NCBI GenBank assembly: GCA_947643665.1
Contig: CANRWW010000021.1
Location: 1 to 46,913 of the forward strand
Source of the DNA: an uncultured Porphyromonadaceae bacterium
GTDB lineage: Bacteria > Bacteroidota > Bacteroidia > Bacteroidales > Muribaculaceae
Reading direction: 5' to 3'
DNA length: 46,913 nucleotides
Shown: positions 23,231-29,402 of the stretch, in pieces
How positions within the stretch are numbered: the stretch's first letter is position 1
Layout of the letters: each line of letters opens with the position of its first letter
Notes under the pieces: model-generated
Seen by the model: the letters and a program-made list of their open reading frames with translations, nothing else
Told to the model about the DNA's origin: nothing
Database searches by the model: none
Position numbers and translations under genes: made by a program

Positions 23231-24730
23231 ATGTCTGCCCAATTCGTCATGCCCCTTCTATTGATTGTCGGCCAGAAGCCTATAGATGTTACACGTTTCA
23301 TCGGCGACAGCGACGGCTTCTCCTATGCAATCGCGCAGTTTATCATGAACATAGTAAACTGGCTGCTTGGGGTTGTCGGTCTTGAGAAGAATACAACCGT
23401 AGTCACTTTCATGTATGCCGTAGTCGTGCTTGGGGTAGCGATCGTGGCAGGATGGATAGTGCAATGGATAGTGCTCAAGGGGGTAAAGGCCATAGCCCAC
23501 CGCTGGGATTCAGACATGTACCATGCCCTGACCAACGTAAGGTTTTTCCATAAAATCTGCCGTATAATTCCTCCTGTAGTATTCCTCATCCTCATACAGT
23601 TCACTCTCTCAAACCATAACGCCCTTTCCAATATCCTTACACGGATCACATTGGTCTATATCACTTTCGTAATGGCAATGGCGCTTTCGGCACTGGTAAT
23701 GGGCATCTGGCAGCAGATCAACACCCATGCCAACAAACGAAAACTGCCGCTCAACGGGATAGCACAACTCATAAAAGGGATTATTTGGATTATCGCAGTC
23801 ATAATATTCGTGGCGATAATACTTGACAAGTCACCGGGAAAACTTCTGGCTGGGCTAGGAGCATTCGCCGCCGTGCTGATGCTTATTTTCAAAGACAGCA
23901 TACTCGGAGTGGTGGCAGGAGTGCAGCTCTCTGAAAACGACAGCCTGCATGTGGGAGACTGGATAAAAGTAAACGGCACGGATGCGAATGGCACTGTGGA
24001 AGAGGTATCGCTTACAGCCGTAAAGGTGCTGAACTGGGACAAGACAACCACTACCCTGCCCCCATATAGCCTCATAAGCTCAGGTTTCACAAACTACCGC
24101 ACGATGCAGAAGAGCAATACACGTCGCATATGCCGCAGCTACATGATTGACGCCGACAGCGTGGTGCCGGCCAGTCCGGAAATGCTTGAACAGATACGCA
24201 AAGTCCCGTTCATGGATGACTACATAACAAAGAAACTCGCACAGAAAGCGGCAGGCAAGATTGCCGACGTAAACAACCCCGACGGACTTGCGGACGGAAC
24301 AATAGACACCAACCTGGGCCTTTTCCGCGCATACATGAAAATGTGGCTTGATGCCAACCCGCACATAGCCCATGACAGCGACTGCTTCGTATCCACTCTG
24401 GAGCAGACCCCCACCGGCATACCATTCCAGGTATATTGTTTCACTGCCACTTCAGCATGGTTCCCATATGAGGCCATACAAGACACTGTATTCGAAAACC
24501 TCGCCGCAATGTTGCGCTTTTTCGGTCTTTATACATTCGAGAATCCTTCTGGCCGCGACACGATAATTGACGGTTATCTCAGCCCTGGCAAAAATATTGA
24601 CACGGTATTCGGTGTCCCCTACCCCTTCTTCAACGGTACCGGCGCACCGTCGCTCCGTAATTCGCCCGGCAATCCCACGGCACAGCCACAAATGCCGGCA
24701 CAACCCGGCTCTAATCAGTCACGCCCCTGA
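23231..24730 (+). CDS. MscS-family mechanosensitive ion channel
   Basis: A 499-residue inner membrane channel that should open under hypo-osmotic stretch. About four or five TM segments precede the MscS core: AKLLAGLGAFAAVLMLIFKDSI-like pore helix around 215-240 (glycine/alanine-rich), then the beta domain VQLSENDSLHVGDWIKVNGTDANGTVEEVSL and a mixed C-terminal domain to about 470. The last 30 residues are Pro/Gln-rich. I chose ATG 23231 (MSAQFVMPLLLIVG); the frame is open to 23138, but those residues are not hydrophobic in a useful way. The 3' end overlaps the convergent purN fusion by 16 bp. Confidence 0.9.
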   Translation: MSAQFVMPLLLIVGQKPIDVTRFIGDSDGFSYAIAQFIMNIVNWLLGVVGLEKNTTVVTFMYAVVVLGVAIVAGWIVQWIVLKGVKAIAHRWDSDMYHALTNVRFFHKICRIIPPVVFLILIQFTLSNHNALSNILTRITLVYITFVMAMALSALVMGIWQQINTHANKRKLPLNGIAQLIKGIIWIIAVIIFVAIILDKSPGKLLAGLGAFAAVLMLIFKDSILGVVAGVQLSENDSLHVGDWIKVNGTDANGTVEEVSLTAVKVLNWDKTTTTLPPYSLISSGFTNYRTMQKSNTRRICRSYMIDADSVVPASPEMLEQIRKVPFMDDYITKKLAQKAAGKIADVNNPDGLADGTIDTNLGLFRAYMKMWLDANPHIAHDSDCFVSTLEQTPTGIPFQVYCFTATSAWFPYEAIQDTVFENLAAMLRFFGLYTFENPSGRDTIIDGYLSPGKNIDTVFGVPYPFFNGTGAPSLRNSPGNPTAQPQMPAQPGSNQSRP

Positions 24731-25854
24731 CGAAGAGAAGCATAATCCTCTGCCGACAACCGGTAGAAGCAGAACGTGGTATCGGCTCCTGTGAATGACT
24801 TGTGTCCCTTCTCGGCATGATGATAACGGAACCCGCACTTCTCGGCCACCCGGCGTGAATTTGAGTTCGCCTCATCGCAACTGATCCATACGGCGGCAAG
24901 TGAAAGTTTGCCGAAAGCATGTCTCAGCAAGGCCGCCATAGCCTCCGGAATAATCCCGTTGCCCCAATGAGGTTTTCCAAGCCAATATCCAGCCTCGGCT
25001 TCATTATCTTCCATCTCCCTGGAATTGCGGCTGTCTCCGAACAGCAGTCCGCAGCATCCGACCGGTTCCCCTGCCTCTTTTAGCACCACGGCATACGTTT
25101 CAGGTGCGGAAAACACATCGCGTATCACCACACGGCTATATTCCACAGACTCATGCGGCGCCCATCCTGCAATAGGCCCTACAGCCGGATCAGACGCATA
25201 TCTGAACAGAGCCGGGGCATCACTGTCCTGCCACGGCCTAAGGACAAACCTGCTTGTTTCCATAACCTCACTGAAAAAAGTGCGGCGTATGACACTTGGG
25301 AAATGCCGCATCTCCAGGGCTCGCACCTTAGTGTCTACATCGTCGGCACTGTCAGACGGATCCACAGGCACAGTGTCCTGGAAAATGATACGTCCTTCGT
25401 CGCAATGCTCGCTTACCATATGGATTGTAATTCCAGTATACCGCTCACCCGCGGCAACTACAGCCTCATGGACGCGGCGTCCATACATCCCCTTGCCCCC
25501 ATATTTCGGAAGGAGCGACGGGTGTATGTTGACCATCCGCTCACGGTAACGCTCTATCAGGAATCCTGGCACCATAAGAAGGAAACCGGCCAGGGCAACT
25601 ACCCCTATATGGTGGCTGTCAAGCAGCGCGGTCATAAAATCCTCGTCGTTGATCCCATCTTTCGGCACCACCTTCACAGGCACTCCATACCTGCCGGCAC
25701 GTGCTATAACACCGGCATCAGCACGGTTGGTCACCACAAGCGCCACCTTGGCACCGCATGGCACCGCTTGAAAATGCCGTATTATATTCTCGGCATTCGT
25801 TCCCTCTCCGGAAGCGAATATAGCTATGTTCTGGTACGTCGTTCCTTTCTCCAT
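24715..25854 (-). CDS. purN: PurN-GNAT fusion: GAR formyltransferase joined to an N-acetyltransferase
   Basis: Residues 1-197 are phosphoribosylglycinamide formyltransferase, the third step of de novo purine synthesis: ASGEGTNAENII near 14, catalytic Asn109 and His111 in VNIHPSLLP, and Asp152 in SEHCDEG. Residues 198-379 are a RimJ/RimL-type GNAT acetyltransferase starting METSRFVLRPW, with the acetyl-CoA region YWLGKPHWGNGIIPEAMAAL and NSNSRRVAEKCGF. Usual PurN is about 190 residues, so the second domain is an addition. Met198 (ATG 25263-25261) looks like the former start of a separate gene, which suggests a head-to-tail fusion by loss of the purN stop. I start at ATG 25854. A good promoter lies at 25888-25918. 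Confidence 0.9.
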   Translation of the reverse strand: MEKGTTYQNIAIFASGEGTNAENIIRHFQAVPCGAKVALVVTNRADAGVIARAGRYGVPVKVVPKDGINDEDFMTALLDSHHIGVVALAGFLLMVPGFLIERYRERMVNIHPSLLPKYGGKGMYGRRVHEAVVAAGERYTGITIHMVSEHCDEGRIIFQDTVPVDPSDSADDVDTKVRALEMRHFPSVIRRTFFSEVMETSRFVLRPWQDSDAPALFRYASDPAVGPIAGWAPHESVEYSRVVIRDVFSAPETYAVVLKEAGEPVGCCGLLFGDSRNSREMEDNEAEAGYWLGKPHWGNGIIPEAMAALLRHAFGKLSLAAVWISCDEANSNSRRVAEKCGFRYHHAEKGHKSFTGADTTFCFYRLSAEDYASLRQGRD

Positions 25855-25887
25855 ATATTGTGACGCTTGTTTAATGCTTTTATGCTC

Positions 25888-25918
25888 CAAAATTAAACAA
25901 AAAAGCCCGATTATCAAT
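25888..25918 (-). promoter_or_regulatory. Promoter for the purN fusion
   Basis: Minus strand ATTG (25918-25915), 19 bp, TAATTTTG (25895-25888). The start codon at 25854 is 33 bp beyond the -7 box. Confidence 0.55.
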
Positions 25919-26002
25919 CCTCACATCACCTCTTCGCAAACACTGACCGCCGATCAAATGTATTTATCTAGACATACTTGATTATCATCCAAATATTTTT
26001 TG

Positions 26003-26010
26003 TAACTTTA
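26003..26010 (+). promoter_or_regulatory. -7-like box before the DUF3791/DUF3990 trio
   Basis: TAACTTTA differs from TAnnTTTG only in the last base. A TTG at 25978-25980 lies 22 bp upstream as a weak -33. It is 77 bp before the first ATG at 26088. Confidence 0.4.
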
Positions 26011-26087
26011 CGTTTAGCATCTTCTCATGAAATTTAGATCGTATGACGTTGATGTTGATAACTTATAGCAAGCAACAGAGCATACAC

Positions 26088-26312
26088 ATGGACAAGAAAG
26101 AAATATTTAACAGAATAGAATATGTGGTGGCTTGTATCGGGGCTTTTGCACAGCGATACAATCTCTCCAACCAGCAGGCATATGCTTATCTGCGACGTTT
26201 TACCGGCATTGATTTTCTTCTTGACTGTTACGCCGCCGAACACACACTCTCTATTGACGATGCTGTAACAGACCTCCAGATACTTTGCAACAGGAAAGGA
26301 GGAAAGATATGA
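26088..26312 (+). CDS. DUF3791 family small protein
   Basis: A 74-residue protein of the DUF3791 type (EYVVACIGAFAQRYNLSNQQAYAYLRRFTG, then LLDCYAAEHTLSIDDAVTDLQ). The start ATG 26088 (MDKKEIFNRIE) matches the family; the frame is open upstream but not like it. The stop overlaps the next start as ATGA (26309-26312), so translation of the two genes should be coupled. DUF3791 genes commonly neighbour DUF3990 genes, as here. I infer a role as partner or neutralising protein for the DUF3990 product; that is not established. Confidence 0.78.
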   Translation: MDKKEIFNRIEYVVACIGAFAQRYNLSNQQAYAYLRRFTGIDFLLDCYAAEHTLSIDDAVTDLQILCNRKGGKI

Positions 26313-26796
26313 CCCTGCTCTATCACGGTTCCAACGTTGCCATTGAACAAATTGACCTCTCTCGAAGTAAACGAGGCAAAGATTTTGGTCAAGGATTCTA
26401 TCTGAATGCCAATCCCGAACAGGCGATGGCAATGGCAATCTGAACGTCCCGTTTTATGAACGAAGGACAACCGACATTGTCATGCTTGAGTTTCATGAAG
26501 ACGAAGCATTTAAAACTGGATTGAATATAAAAACCTTTTCCGAGTATTCTGTGGAATTGGCTGAATTCATAGTTATGAACCGTAAAAACAATTCAGACAT
26601 ACCGGCGCATCCATACGATATTGTAATCGGCCCTATCGCAGATGATACAGTCGGTGTACAGATTCGCCGCTACACAATGGGGTATATGTCGGCATCTGCC
26701 TTGGTAGAAGAATTAAAATTCAAGGGAGACCATGCAATACAATATTTCTTTGGCACCACACGTGCCATAAACTTTCTTAAAAGGATTGAGTTATGA
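26309..26796 (+). pseudogene. DUF3990 family gene, ADP-ribosyltransferase-like, broken by a frameshift
   Basis: From ATG 26309 the first 44 codons read LLYHGSNVAIEQIDL and RGKDFGQGFYLNANPEQAMAMA, the start of a DUF3990 protein, then hit TGA at 26441-26443. The rest continues in the next frame from about 26437: DIVMLEFHEDEAF, EFIVMNRKN, YDIVIGPIADDTVG and ALVEELKFKGDHAIQYFFGT, which is the C-terminal part of the same family. One missing base around 26430-26441, in GGCAATGGCAATC, explains the break. The YHGS and GxGFY motifs recall the His and Tyr of ADP-ribosyltransferase folds (inference from motif shape). The intact gene would encode about 162 residues and would overlap both neighbours by ATGA. 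Confidence 0.8.
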
Positions 26797-27014
26797 CACA
26801 AGACATACAGTTTCAGATAGAATGTCTCGCCACTGAATTGACAGAGATGTTGATGAATGAATATGGCTGGGACATCCGCCAGGCTCTTGACGAACTTTAT
26901 TCCTCAACAACATTCGCCCGACTCAACGATCCCGAATGTGGCCTCTATTATCAGGGATCAGTTTACATCTTCCAGTTCCTCAAGTCCGAAATAGAAACAG
27001 GAAAAATCGCATAA
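26793..27014 (+). CDS. Small acidic partner protein of the DUF3791/DUF3990 trio
   Basis: A 73-residue protein beginning at the ATGA overlap with the DUF3990 gene (26793-26796). The sequence LTEMLMNEYGWDIRQALDELYSSTTFARLNDPECGLYYQGSVYIFQFLKSEI is of a kind I have seen beside DUF3990 genes and may be a distant DUF3791 relative, but I cannot name the family with certainty. It is helical and acidic. It remains intact although the central gene is broken. Confidence 0.7.
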   Translation: MTQDIQFQIECLATELTEMLMNEYGWDIRQALDELYSSTTFARLNDPECGLYYQGSVYIFQFLKSEIETGKIA

Positions 27015-27021
27015 ACCCACA

Positions 27022-27042
27022 CAAGTTCGAGGCTTGAACTTG
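27022..27042. promoter_or_regulatory. Perfect 7-bp inverted repeat overlapping a -33 box
   Basis: CAAGTTC (27022-27028), spacer GAGGCTT and GAACTTG (27036-27042). The right arm ends in CTTG, the -33 of the next promoter. It lies 7 bp past the trio's last stop. It could be an operator for the outer membrane gene or a hairpin at the end of the trio; there is no T-run directly after it. Confidence 0.5.
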
Positions 27043-27070
27043 CAGTTTTGAAATTATATTCGTAGTTTTG
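27039..27070 (+). promoter_or_regulatory. Promoter for the outer membrane beta-barrel gene
   Basis: CTTG (27039-27042), 20 bp, TAGTTTTG (27063-27070), then the ATG at 27109. Good match to the Bacteroidota rule. Confidence 0.6.
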
Positions 27071-27108
27071 CCAAAACATCAACACAATCATTCAAATTCA
27101 AGCCTTTT

Positions 27109-29402
27109 ATGAACGGACTTATCAGGAATATTGCCATCTGCATACTGGCAGCTACAGTTTCCCATGCTGCCGGCGGTTTCGACCTCCGGGTGAAGATTGA
27201 GACGGAACGGAGCCGGAGCGCGGTGGCGGGTCTTTTTCCGGAAGCCACTTACCCGAACGGATGGACTATCGCCAAAGGGGTGTGGCATCAGTACCGGTTC
27301 AAGGATCTTCCTGACGAATCAATACAGATCAGGTATGTGATAGACGGGAGCCAATGGGCCACGGATATACCGGAACCGACAGACAGTATCACCATACGCA
27401 TCCCGGATGTTATGCTCATGCAATCGCTGTCGGAGGTGACTGTGCAGGCCGACCGCCAGTATATGACCGATGACAAAAGCGTGTATGTGCCGTCAAGACG
27501 CGACAAAAAAATCTCTTCCTCAGGCACACGTCTGTTGCAGGCAATGGCGATACCCTCACTGGATGTAAACCCTGAAAACAACGTGGTCACTACGGCCGCC
27601 GGCGAGGGAGTGGCGATATATATTGACCATGTTCCCGCATCAAAAGAAGAAATCGCCGGGATGCGCACTATGGATGTGGCGAGGGTTGAGGTGTTCGACT
27701 ATCCTAAAGACCCGCGTTTCTCAGGTGCGCGCCATGTGGTGAATTTCGTAATGCAGAAGTATGAGTACGGCGGATATACACGGGTGGGAGCCGCCCAGAC
27801 TTTCGTCACGGATATGGGATCATATTCCGTGAATTCAAAGATGGTGTGCAAACGCATGACCTACGATCTGGCCGGCGCATTCAACTATTCGCGCGACACC
27901 CACACAGGAGAAACGTCTGTTACCGATTATATCTTTCCCGATATGCATGTGACACGCGACATGGCCACAGAATCCTCCCTTGACAAGCAGCATGGAGGTA
28001 ACGCCTCCTTCCGCGCGCTATACAGAAACGGGGCTACGGTGATCTCCAACACCGCAGGGGTTGTAATCACAAAAACACCCGGCAATTTCCGACGCGATGC
28101 CACATCGTTCACCCCCGGTGTATATCCTTCCGATATCTCGCTCACGCAATCAGACAAAAGCGGTCTTTCCCCATCCTGGGAAGGATACTATATGTTCACG
28201 CTTCCGAAAGAGATCTCGCTATCCATGCGGCCAACTGCGTCATATGGCCGCTACAGGCGCGACTATTCGTTTGTATCATCAGGAAACCCCATTACCAACC
28301 ATGCCACAGACGACGCATGGCAGTACAATCTTTCGACAACGATGCAGAAACAGTTCGGCAACCAAAGTCTTGGACTATCCGTTTCCGGAGGAGGCAACGG
28401 CAACCGCATGAATTATGCCGGCACCAATCCCGCCAAAGTCAACACACGGTTCAATTTCGCTGATATCCAGATTGTAGGAAATCTCAGATTCGGCAAACTC
28501 TGGATACAGGGAAATGCCGGGGGAGCATATTCCCATACTTCAATCAACAACACATCGAAGACCGAGCTATATCCCCGGTATTTTATAGCGACAGGATACA
28601 ATATCAACGATAAAAACCGCCTGAGCCTTGCTCCGAACTGTCCCACTGGACAATTCCCATGAGCGAACAAGGCCCCAACACCATCTTGTTAAACCAGATA
28701 GACGCCTTGCAGGGTGGAGAAGACCTAAAGACATCACGCTACAATTCCGTTCTGGCACAATATGACTGGATGCCTGCGCAAAAGATCTCGTTCACCATCT
28801 TCGGGCAGTTCATCCGTCACACCCGCCCGGTATCAGACATCTATTTCCCTCTGGAGGGGAGCGCTACCCCGGTAATGGTGCAACGGTACGTGAACAGCGG
28901 TTTCCTTAACCAATGGAAATATGGCGGTTCGATAGCCTTGCGCCTTCTTGACGGAAATCTGACATGCAAACTGAATGCGACCGGTCTGAATTACGACCGC
29001 CGGGGAGTACAGGAATACCGCGGCGATTACCTGCATCTCAGCGCAGAAGCCACATATTCCATAGGAAATTTCTATTTCTCGGGATATTACAGCCACCGAA
29101 ACAAAAGCATCTCTGCTGTGCACAGAAATGAACGCCCGGAATATTACTACCTCATGGCAGGATGGGGCAACGGCAATCTGCATATATCCGCACGAGCCAA
29201 CAACTTCTGTCGCACCTCGTGGAACGGCGCACGCAGCCTACTCGTTGCCGAGAGCTACCGAAAAGAGACGCAACTGTCTGGAACCACCTATCACCAATGG
29301 TTCAAGCTTTCGGTAAGCTATTCGATACCATACGGCAAAAAACTGTCTGACAGACAGGATGTACAGACCCCAGGGGGAGCATCCTCCGCCATACTCAACT
29401 GA
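27109..29402 (+). pseudogene. Outer membrane beta-barrel protein (TonB-receptor-like), frameshifted
   Basis: Two open frames belong to one gene. The first (27109-28662) starts with a signal peptide (ends near SHAAG) and has a plug-like part (LSEVTVQADRQYM, then GVAIYIDHVPASKEEIAGM, VARVEVFDYPKDPRFSGARHVVNFVMQ), followed by barrel strands. It ends NRLSLAPNCPTGQFP. In the next frame the text just before 28659 reads SELSHWTIPMSEQGP and carries on as barrel strands to 29402. A single missing base near 28629-28633 links them. The whole product would be about 764 residues, a normal size for the Bacteroidetes OMP_b-brl_3 type family. Either the gene is inactive or the base is an assembly error. Ligand unknown. 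Confidence 0.82.

What the first reader, a model, noticed from the sequence alone, without database searches (positions are those of the whole stretch)
26088..27014. Three-gene DUF3791/DUF3990/partner unit with ATGA overlaps and a broken central ART-like gene
Three short genes are joined by ATGA overlaps at 26309-26312 and 26793-26796, a layout typical of toxin-antitoxin-like units. The middle one carries YHGS and GQGFY motifs that recall the His/Tyr of ADP-ribosyltransferase folds. It is disrupted by a missing base near 26430-26441, while both flanking small genes are intact. That is the pattern expected if the toxic part was lost and the neutralising parts kept. The function of DUF3990/DUF3791 pairs is, to my knowledge, not firmly described.
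Basis: partly seen in the sequence, partly recalled or inferred. Interest (0 to 1): 0.7.

Follow-up and report, generated by a model that had tools for sequence, protein, structure and literature searches.

The report
Broken toxin gene between predicted antidotes
A gut bacterium carries a three-gene unit in which a predicted ADP-ribosyltransferase toxin gene is broken while the two related small genes around it, predicted to neutralise it, are intact; relatives show the same one-sided loss, as expected of a poison with its antidotes.

Summary
In detail: DUF3791 (26088-26312), a frame-broken DUF3990 gene (26309-26796) and a third small gene (26793-27014), joined by ATGA overlaps. PADLOC already lists such units as phage defence candidate PDC-M13; my searches found no experiment on it.

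Added here: (1) The model of an intact DUF3990 homologue (pLDDT 93.3) matches ADP-ribosyltransferase folds; His, Tyr and Gln at triad-like places are invariant in 104 of 104 intact homologues. (2) The two small genes are paralogues (profile-profile E 2.6e-8). (3) In 119 family genomes, 0 of 62 uncut full-length toxins lack a partner, while nine loci, the window included, keep both partners with the toxin lost or broken; in one the toxin gene is cleanly absent, ATGA to ATGA. (4) The window's copy has a second lesion: a Trp invariant in 104 of 104 is Leu.

Best reading: an ADP-ribosyltransferase toxin held by two paralogous antitoxins, here defused. Toxicity, neutralisation, target and trigger are inferred. 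The next gene downstream is also split between frames, so a read-level check is still wanted.

The parts
26088..26312 (+). upstream small gene, DUF3791 (74 aa), intact; predicted antitoxin 1
   Evidence: PF12668 E 4.7e-24; PDC-M13A E 5.5e-28
26309..26312 (+). ATGA overlap between upstream gene and toxin gene
   Evidence: 4-nt overlap in 70 of 80 relatives
26309..26443 (+). first piece of the broken DUF3990 gene (motifs YHGS and GQGFY), ends at TGA
26464..26796 (+). second piece of the broken DUF3990 gene in another frame; keeps the conserved Gln, has Leu at the otherwise invariant Trp
26793..26796 (+). ATGA overlap between toxin gene and downstream gene
   Evidence: 4-nt overlap in 69 of 80 relatives
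26793..27014 (+). downstream small gene (73 aa), intact, diverged paralogue of DUF3791; predicted antitoxin 2
   Evidence: (PDC-M13C E 1.6e-15)
26044..27015 (+). stretch shared with the units of four relatives (about 78% DNA identity); similarity starts at 26044-26049 and ends at 27005-27015, with no match to the window's flanks
25959..26994 (.). stretch absent from the matching site of a same-genus genome (G158)

Best explanation
The unit is a toxin-antitoxin operon. The middle protein, when intact, is an ADP-ribosyltransferase-fold toxin with an H-Y-Q type active site that uses NAD+ to modify a target, or simply consumes it, and so arrests the cell. The two small helical proteins beside it are paralogues that act together, most simply as a heterodimer holding the toxin inactive; ATGA overlaps couple the translation of the three, and in a minority of relatives the DUF3791 partner carries an Xre-type DNA-binding domain that would let it repress the operon. 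Loss of the partners, or phage attack, would free the toxin. In this genome the toxin has been inactivated by a frame change and a substitution at an invariant Trp, leaving the antitoxin pair. Shown by sequence: layout, paralogy, fold, invariant residues, direction of loss. Inferred: toxicity, neutralisation, heterodimer, target, trigger, defence role.
For: Fold: model of the intact homologue L035, pLDDT 93.3, pTM 0.88; of the 50 PDB matches listed (148 found at E<=10), 49 are by title ART-superfamily proteins, led by the RES toxin of a Xre-RES pair (E 1.9e-3, prob 1.00), then ExoA, ParT, diphtheria toxin, PARPs, KptA/Tpt1 (superfamily membership of these names is recalled). His6, Tyr31, Gln145 invariant in 104 of 104 intact toxins, fitting the H-Y-[EDQ] clade (PMC7955679 passages). 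Paralogy: hhalign 95.2%, E 2.6e-8 against 0.5% and 0.3% for toxin-versus-partner controls; the Pfam DUF3791 model also hits the downstream gene in 6 loci, 3 of them over the cut-off. Fusions: downstream partner + DUF3791 in one protein (L007, E 5e-13 and 7e-14; plasmid pBUN1; L303-L306); toxin + downstream partner (L114, L116). Census: 0 of 62 uncut full-length toxins lack a partner; 9 loci keep both partners without a working toxin. If the loss hit the three genes by length (toxin 0.523 of the unit) 9 of 9 has chance 0.003. Partners beside lost toxins remain constrained, pN below pS in 15 of 15 comparisons. HTH_3 domain on 7 of 80 DUF3791 partners.
Against: No experiment. No PDB match reaches E 0.001. 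The partner model (pLDDT 86.9, pTM 0.58, six sequences) matches no solved fold (best E 1.0). The heterodimer is inferred only from fusions and co-occurrence. Some distant homologues have one recognisable partner or none: Lactobacillus (L282) has only the downstream type, Priestia and Geobacillus virus E3 only a small gene at E about 0.5, and for L292, L293, L299 and L301 no partner passed E 0.01. In 5 uncut loci the downstream gene is lost along with the toxin's core, and others keep only the downstream gene, so the pair is not always kept. The toxin-less pair L153 is recent (partners 97-100% identical to those beside toxins). In the window the next gene downstream is also split between frames, so a local assembly error is not excluded.
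Confidence: 0.78

Rival explanations
1. Toxin-antitoxin pair with one true antitoxin (the downstream gene); DUF3791 is a regulator, chaperone or phage sensor, as CmdC is in CmdTAC.
For: A distant homologue keeps a downstream-type partner only (Lactobacillus); HTH_3 domains are fused to DUF3791 in 7 of 80; the downstream partner, not DUF3791, is fused to the toxin in L114 and L116; in PDC-M10-type units the fused partner's second half is clearly the downstream type (E 5.5e-8) while its first half resembles DUF3791 only weakly (E 0.0066, probability 5.7%).
Against: The two are paralogues and are fused to each other in L007 and others; in the census 61 of 62 uncut full-length toxins clearly have both, the other being PDC-M10 type; DUF3791 outlasts toxin and downstream gene in five uncut loci.
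Confidence: 0.35
2. NAD+-depleting toxin like RES toxins rather than an ADP-ribosyltransferase that modifies a macromolecule.
For: The best PDB matches are RES toxins, a family reported to degrade NAD+ (SlvT passages in PMC7301842); HTH fusions recall Xre-RES pairs.
Against: His-Tyr-Gln with an HGS motif is the H-Y-[EDQ] pattern of PARPs and diphtheria toxin, and no RES Pfam model hits up to E 1.
Confidence: 0.35
3. The frame change in the window is a sequencing or assembly error and the toxin is intact in the living organism.
For: The neighbouring gene 27109-29402 is also split between two frames (517 and 247 aa), whereas 21 of 25 matches covering at least 200 of the 247 residues of its second part lie in open frames of 691-859 residues; the genome is a 68-contig draft.
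Against: A Trp invariant in 104 of 104 intact toxins is Leu in the window; the second piece has more amino-acid change against L035 (32.8 of 246.0 sites) than the partners (13.0 of 173.5; 12.5 of 173.7); toxin loss is recurrent in the family.
Confidence: 0.25
4. The partners are kept after toxin loss because they protect against incoming related units (anti-addiction; concept recalled, papers seen only as a listing), not because loss is recent.
For: Both partners are open and constrained in diverged toxin-less loci such as L149, L129 and L192 (pN 0.03-0.10 against pS 0.46-0.86); related toxins occur on plasmids and phages.
Against: pN and pS cover the whole path to the nearest relative, most of which may predate toxin loss; several loci have lost one partner as well.
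Confidence: 0.3
5. Not a toxin-antitoxin unit: a conserved three-gene module with a metabolic or signalling role.
For: No toxicity data were found.
Against: Patchy presence (192 of 397 family genomes), plasmid and phage carriage, a copy inside a type I restriction operon, one-way loss, ART fold.
Confidence: 0.07

Closest known systems
PDC-M13 (and PDC-M10) of PADLOC-DB
   Same: All three window genes match PDC-M13 models. Relative L021 has a toxin followed by one gene that matches PDC-M10B (E 3.2e-56); the second half of that gene type is the downstream partner (hhalign E 5.5e-8). PDC-M13 was counted 3,324 times in a survey of 6,530 rumen genomes (PMC13356809, passage).
   Different: The PADLOC copy used gives no mechanism and keeps M10 and M13 apart; they look like arrangements of one system, but the kinship of M10B's first half with DUF3791 is weak (E 0.0066).
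Xre-RES / ParST toxin-antitoxin systems
   Same: ART-fold toxin next to a small antitoxin; nearest solved folds; some DUF3791 partners carry HTH domains of Xre type.
   Different: No RES model hit; two paralogous partners, without an HTH domain in the window.
CmdTAC
   Same: Three-gene anti-phage unit with an ART toxin of the diphtheria-toxin family (passages of PMC11618068).
   Different: The third component there is a SecB-like chaperone; here the two partners are paralogues of each other.
DarTG
   Same: ART-superfamily toxin with an antitoxin and a phage-defence role (passages of PMC9503650).
   Different: No DarT or macrodomain model hit in the unit.
DUF3990 as Rhs effector tip (Rhs5-CT of Serratia)
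   Same: Same Pfam domain in a toxin candidate (PMC4524185, passage).
   Different: There it is the C-terminal part of an Rhs protein followed by one distinct small gene; here a free-standing protein with two partners.

Membership tests
DUF3990 (PF13151) | score above the Pfam gathering cut-off (32.2 bits) | tested here: met
   pieces apart score 52.8 and 71.9 bits
DUF3791 (PF12668) | score above the cut-off (25 bits) | tested here: met
   upstream gene 84.6 bits. The window's downstream gene has no Pfam hit; in 6 other loci the model hits the downstream gene, 3 of 6 over the cut-off
PDC-M13 (PADLOC candidate) | its component models hit by adjacent genes | tested here: met
   the toxin component is broken, so a working system is not implied
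ART superfamily, H-Y-[EDQ] clade | ART fold | tested here: met
   model of an intact homologue; best PDB E-value 1.9e-3
ART superfamily, H-Y-[EDQ] clade | His, Tyr and Glu/Asp/Gln triad | tested here: met
   His6, Tyr31, Gln145 invariant in 104 of 104, all three kept in the window's pieces; their closeness in space was not measured, as no coordinates are given
ART superfamily, H-Y-[EDQ] clade | NAD+-dependent transferase activity | not testable with these tools
   needs enzyme assay
type II toxin-antitoxin system | adjacent co-directed small genes, one with a toxin fold | tested here: met
type II toxin-antitoxin system | toxin not kept without antitoxin | tested here: met
   0 of 62 uncut full-length toxins in 119 genomes lack a partner; less clear in distant homologues
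type II toxin-antitoxin system | toxicity and neutralisation by protein contact | not testable with these tools
   bench test needed
type II toxin-antitoxin system | antitoxin represses its operon | tested here: inconclusive
   HTH_3 domain in 7 of 80 upstream partners; no HTH match over a cut-off in the window's (only sub-threshold hits such as HTH_28 and ANTAR)
Xre-RES | RES domain and Xre/COG5642 antitoxin | tested here: not met
   no RES model hit up to E 1; window partners lack an Xre match
DarTG | DarT domain and macrodomain antitoxin | tested here: not met
   no such Pfam hits up to E 1
CmdTAC | SecB-like chaperone gene | tested here: not met
   no SecB hit among the three genes; the third gene is a DUF3791 paralogue

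The most novel reading that the evidence does not exclude
An abundant toxin-antitoxin class in which one ADP-ribosyltransferase toxin needs two paralogous antitoxins acting as an obligate pair, and in which the pair, once the toxin is lost, lives on as a free-standing immunity module against sister units carried by plasmids and phages; PDC-M10 and PDC-M13 are rearranged forms of this one system, and the window is a half-way stage of the conversion.
Probability: 0.28. Interest if true: 0.68.

Novelty: new variant of a known kind. Interest (0 to 1): 0.5.

Why it matters
DUF3990 occurs in about half of the sampled family genomes (192 of 397), and PDC-M13 was among the commoner systems counted in a rumen survey (PMC13356809, passage), yet no experiment on it turned up. 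The natural losses described here say which gene should be toxic and which should protect, so a simple expression test in laboratory E. coli would settle it. If the two paralogues prove to be a joint antitoxin, that is an unusual way to hold a toxin, and the toxin-less pairs would be ready-made cases of immunity left behind.

Tried and rejected
Considered and rejected: unrelated third gene (hhalign); programmed frameshift in the middle gene (no slippery motif seen by eye; 104 intact relatives have one open frame; not tested further); an RNA element (Rfam 0 hits at gathering threshold in 25800-27300); insertion with flanking repeats (two short two-copy direct families and two inverted pairs, none flanking the unit convincingly); promoters and terminators (5 promoter-like sites against 3.7 in shuffles, 0 terminator-like against 1.2). 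Led nowhere: PDB sequence searches with the toxin (0 hits); NCBIfam (0 hits); PHROGs (one family of unknown function, weak); fold search with the partner model (best E 1.0). A4, meant to place toxin and downstream partner on a fused protein, failed because the short rows were misaligned and was not used.

The counts were rewritten and the odds of the novel case lowered from 0.30 to 0.28. The number of downstream genes over Pfam's cut-off is 3 of 6.

Rows dropped before the census count: 6 DUF3791 hits lying on the downstream gene, 1 weak DUF3791 hit (G045:C194) and 3 weak toxin hits (G080:C12, G017:C8, G030:C11). Of the 101 clusters counted, several single-gene ones are cut by contig ends. G085:C29 is full-length by model coverage but has an internal stop and G056:C97 is cut by a contig end, so neither is among the 62. 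G045:C52 holds two units.

Full report
What is there. On the + strand, 26088-26312 encodes a 74-residue DUF3791 protein (Pfam E 4.7e-24), 26309-26796 a DUF3990 gene in two frames, and 26793-27014 a 73-residue protein without a Pfam hit. The genes meet in ATGA overlaps at 26309-26312 and 26793-26796. The first DUF3990 piece covers profile positions 3-42 and ends in TGA at 26441-26443; the second covers 49/60-151 in another frame. PADLOC's models for the phage defence candidate PDC-M13 hit all of them. I found no other copy in the genome.

How common and how constant the unit is. In 397 genomes of the same family 192 have DUF3990 (185 over the cut-off). I looked at three sets of loci found by the toxin: the 30 best family matches, 60 further places from the listed part of that table, and the 80 best loci kept from a scan of named genomes in which 566 stretches encoded a relative. 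All three favour high-scoring toxins, and some genomes may be in more than one set. Of these 170 loci, 167 have both partners by profile: 28 of 30, 59 of 60, 80 of 80. The other three are L030 (upstream region masked; downstream gene present), L021 and L261 (one fused gene after the toxin, see below). In four of the 167 the toxin has an in-frame stop: L016, L080, L089, L092; in L016 the downstream gene and in L089 the upstream gene is damaged as well. In the named set the upstream overlap is 4 nt in 70 of 80 and the downstream one in 69 of 80.

The two small genes are related. A profile of 22 upstream proteins against 27 downstream proteins gives hhalign probability 95.2% and E 2.6e-8 over 60 columns; the controls, toxin against each, give 0.5% and 0.3%. 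The Pfam DUF3791 model itself hits the downstream gene in six loci of the family, three of them over its cut-off. A model of a natural protein that is the two in one chain (pLDDT 86.9, pTM 0.58) has a similar order of helices in both halves: 3-24, 28-36, 40-44, 56-69, then 76-93, 97-106, 109-115, 117-120, 125-140. No solved fold matches it (best E 1.0).

Arrangements. Besides upstream-toxin-downstream I saw: downstream partner and DUF3791 fused, before the toxin (L007; plasmid pBUN1; L303-L306, by their match to L007); the same two as separate genes before the toxin (L308, L317, read by eye; L313, whose toxin has a stop); toxin, downstream partner, DUF3791 (Moraxella plasmid; viral contigs L288-L291); a second downstream-type gene after the first (L294-L296); toxin fused to the downstream partner (L114, L116). 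In L021, L261 and L302 the toxin is followed by one gene of about 150 residues; that of L021 matches PDC-M10B at E 3.2e-56. Its second half is the downstream partner (hhalign 94.8%, E 5.5e-8); its first half aligns in register with DUF3791 but weakly (5.7%, E 0.0066; toxin control E 0.21). In the Moraxella plasmid the three genes stand between hsdM and hsdS of a type I restriction operon, each gene overlapping the next by 4 nt. Seven of 80 DUF3791 partners carry an HTH_3 domain. Relatives of the toxin occur in 70 of 72,556 plasmid records, 6 of 50,697 phage records and 16 viral-contig loci. Far relatives are less regular: Lactobacillus has the downstream type only; Priestia and Geobacillus virus E3 have one small gene that the profiles barely see; for L292, L293, L299 and L301 no partner passed E 0.01, though L292, L299 and L301 have a small gene next to the toxin.

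The toxin. The intact homologue L035 (162 aa) was modelled with 28 natural sequences: pLDDT 93.3, pTM 0.88. Foldseek found 148 PDB matches at E<=10 and none at E<=0.001; of the 50 listed, 49 carry names of ART-superfamily proteins as I know them, led by the RES toxin of the Pseudomonas putida Xre-RES pair (E 1.9e-3), then ExoA, ParT, diphtheria toxin, PARPs, tankyrases and KptA/Tpt1; one, the VPA0770 toxin, I could not place. This is a fold assignment, not close kinship. Among viral models the best is an unnamed 202-residue protein at E 9.7e-12, TM 0.77, followed by ART-PolyVal and other phage proteins. In 104 intact toxins (28 of A1 and 76 of the 80 named loci) 13 columns never vary, among them His6 (motif HGS), Tyr31 and Gln145. 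PMC7955679 (passages) places DUF3990 in Pfam's ART clan and describes the H-Y-[EDQ] clade, with PARP motifs HGS and YFA. The assignment of Gln145 as third member is mine, from its invariance and its place in a C-terminal strand.

One-way loss. I searched 119 family genomes with each of the three families and grouped hits within 1,000 bases: 101 clusters. Of 64 toxins of full model length, one has an internal stop (G085:C29) and one is cut by a contig end (G056:C97). Of the other 62, 61 clearly have both partners: 60 plainly and G010:C22 with a diverged downstream gene (L196, E 3e-5); G082 is the PDC-M10-type L021. Nine loci have both partners and no working toxin: G024, G031, G038, G055:C20, G080:C5, G080:C39, G039, G097 and the window. 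No cluster has a full-length toxin with one partner seen to be lost. With the toxin making up 0.523 of the unit's length, nine of nine by chance is 0.003; the nine are taken as separate events because lesions and subfamilies differ, which I did not test on a tree. Five more uncut loci keep DUF3791 beside a toxin stub with the downstream gene gone (L132, L157, L168, L171, L198; stubs of three read by eye), and others keep only the downstream gene, some with a toxin remnant. So partners outlast toxins, but the pair is not always kept. Broken toxins between or beside two partners were also seen outside this census: L080, L092, L300, L313.

The clearest case is L153 (G055:C20), of another genus but of the window's own subfamily: DUF3791 and the downstream gene meet in a single ATGA, with the toxin gene absent; its partners are 98.6% and 97.3% identical to those of L035, which has the intact toxin. 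In L129 the nearest relatives of the upstream and of the downstream gene come from different loci, so it looks like a chimera. In 15 of 15 comparisons of partners of eight toxin-less loci with the nearest partner beside a full-length toxin, pN is below pS (L158's downstream gene was not scored); this covers time before the loss too.

The window's own copy. Against L035 the partners differ at 13.0 of 173.5 and 12.5 of 173.7 non-synonymous sites, the first toxin piece at 4.0 of 91.2 and the second at 32.8 of 246.0; whether intact toxins show the same excess at this distance was not tested. At conserved columns the second piece departs once in 12, and at Trp84, invariant in 104 of 104; one departure as such is not unusual (18 of 104 intact toxins have one, 1 has two). 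So there is a second lesion beside the frame change. Against that, the gene just downstream (27109-28662 and 28659-29402) is split between frames too: of 25 matches in relatives covering at least 200 of the 247 residues of its second part, 21 lie in open frames of 691-859 residues. Two frame changes about 2.2 kb apart call for a look at the reads. Intact copies of the DUF3990 gene exist in relatives.

Mobility. Relatives L035 and L040-L042 match the window only from 26044/26049 to 27005/27015, not in the flanks compared (25000-28500). G158, of the same genus, has the window's flanks next to each other without the unit; about 20 bases there resemble the last codons of the downstream gene, so it may be a scar or an empty site.

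How it likely works. Most likely an ADP-ribosyltransferase toxin is held by its two paralogous neighbours and freed when they fail. Shown: layout, kinship, fold, invariance and direction of loss. Inferred: toxicity, the joint antitoxin, the target, the trigger and a defence role; the last leans on PADLOC's candidate status, on the restriction operon and on plasmid and phage carriage. NAD+ depletion and macromolecule modification remain open, and so does whether DUF3791 is antitoxin, regulator or sensor.

Literature. Searches for DUF3990, DUF3791, PDC-M13, PDC-M10 and the Pfam accessions gave only passing mentions: PMC7955679 and PMC4524185 (passages), PMC10763514, PMC12165300 and PMC13391275 (listing only), PMC13356809 (passages). 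PMC11514479 came up for the phrase 'phage defence candidate' (passages; its shown parts name other candidates). PMC9503650, PMC7301842 and PMC11618068 were seen as passages, PMC12457610 as outline and abstract (not used). The library holds open-licence papers and no bioRxiv preprints, so prior work may exist elsewhere.

Noticed in passing
window 27109-29402: The gene just downstream is split between two frames (517 and 247 aa), although 21 of 25 long matches of its second part lie in open frames of 691-859 residues.
   Followed up: partly
window 24715-25917 (-): A formyltransferase domain is joined to a GNAT acetyltransferase domain in one 400-aa ORF.
   Followed up: no
L280:4454-8203: Moraxella osloensis plasmid: DUF3990, downstream partner and DUF3791 sit between hsdM and hsdS of a type I restriction operon, with 4-nt overlaps.
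   Followed up: yes
L263:1582-1800 (-): An orphan downstream partner of the window's subfamily directly follows a gene that resembles DUF1016/YhcG nucleases (name recalled, not searched).
   Followed up: no
L129:1240-1730 (-): A toxin-less pair whose upstream and downstream genes have their nearest relatives in different loci: a likely chimera.
   Followed up: partly
L302:480-1914: A toxin with a PDC-M10B-like gene is followed by a second fused partner (downstream type plus DUF3791) with no toxin of its own next to it.
   Followed up: no
L036/L038 (G158:C98:3192-3545): Site without the unit that keeps about 20 bases resembling the end of the downstream gene: deletion scar or empty site.
   Followed up: partly
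window 26395-26406 and 26812-26823: A perfect 12-nt inverted repeat lies in the first toxin piece and the downstream gene; possibly chance.
   Followed up: no
L021:1023-1478 and L261:1462-1929: PADLOC's PDC-M10 and PDC-M13 may be arrangements of one system: the second half of the M10B-type gene is the M13 downstream partner, the first half only weakly like DUF3791.
   Followed up: partly
L075:2570-2995: In Phocaeicola vulgatus ATCC 8482 the DUF3791 partner carries an HTH_3 domain, a convenient named case.
   Followed up: no
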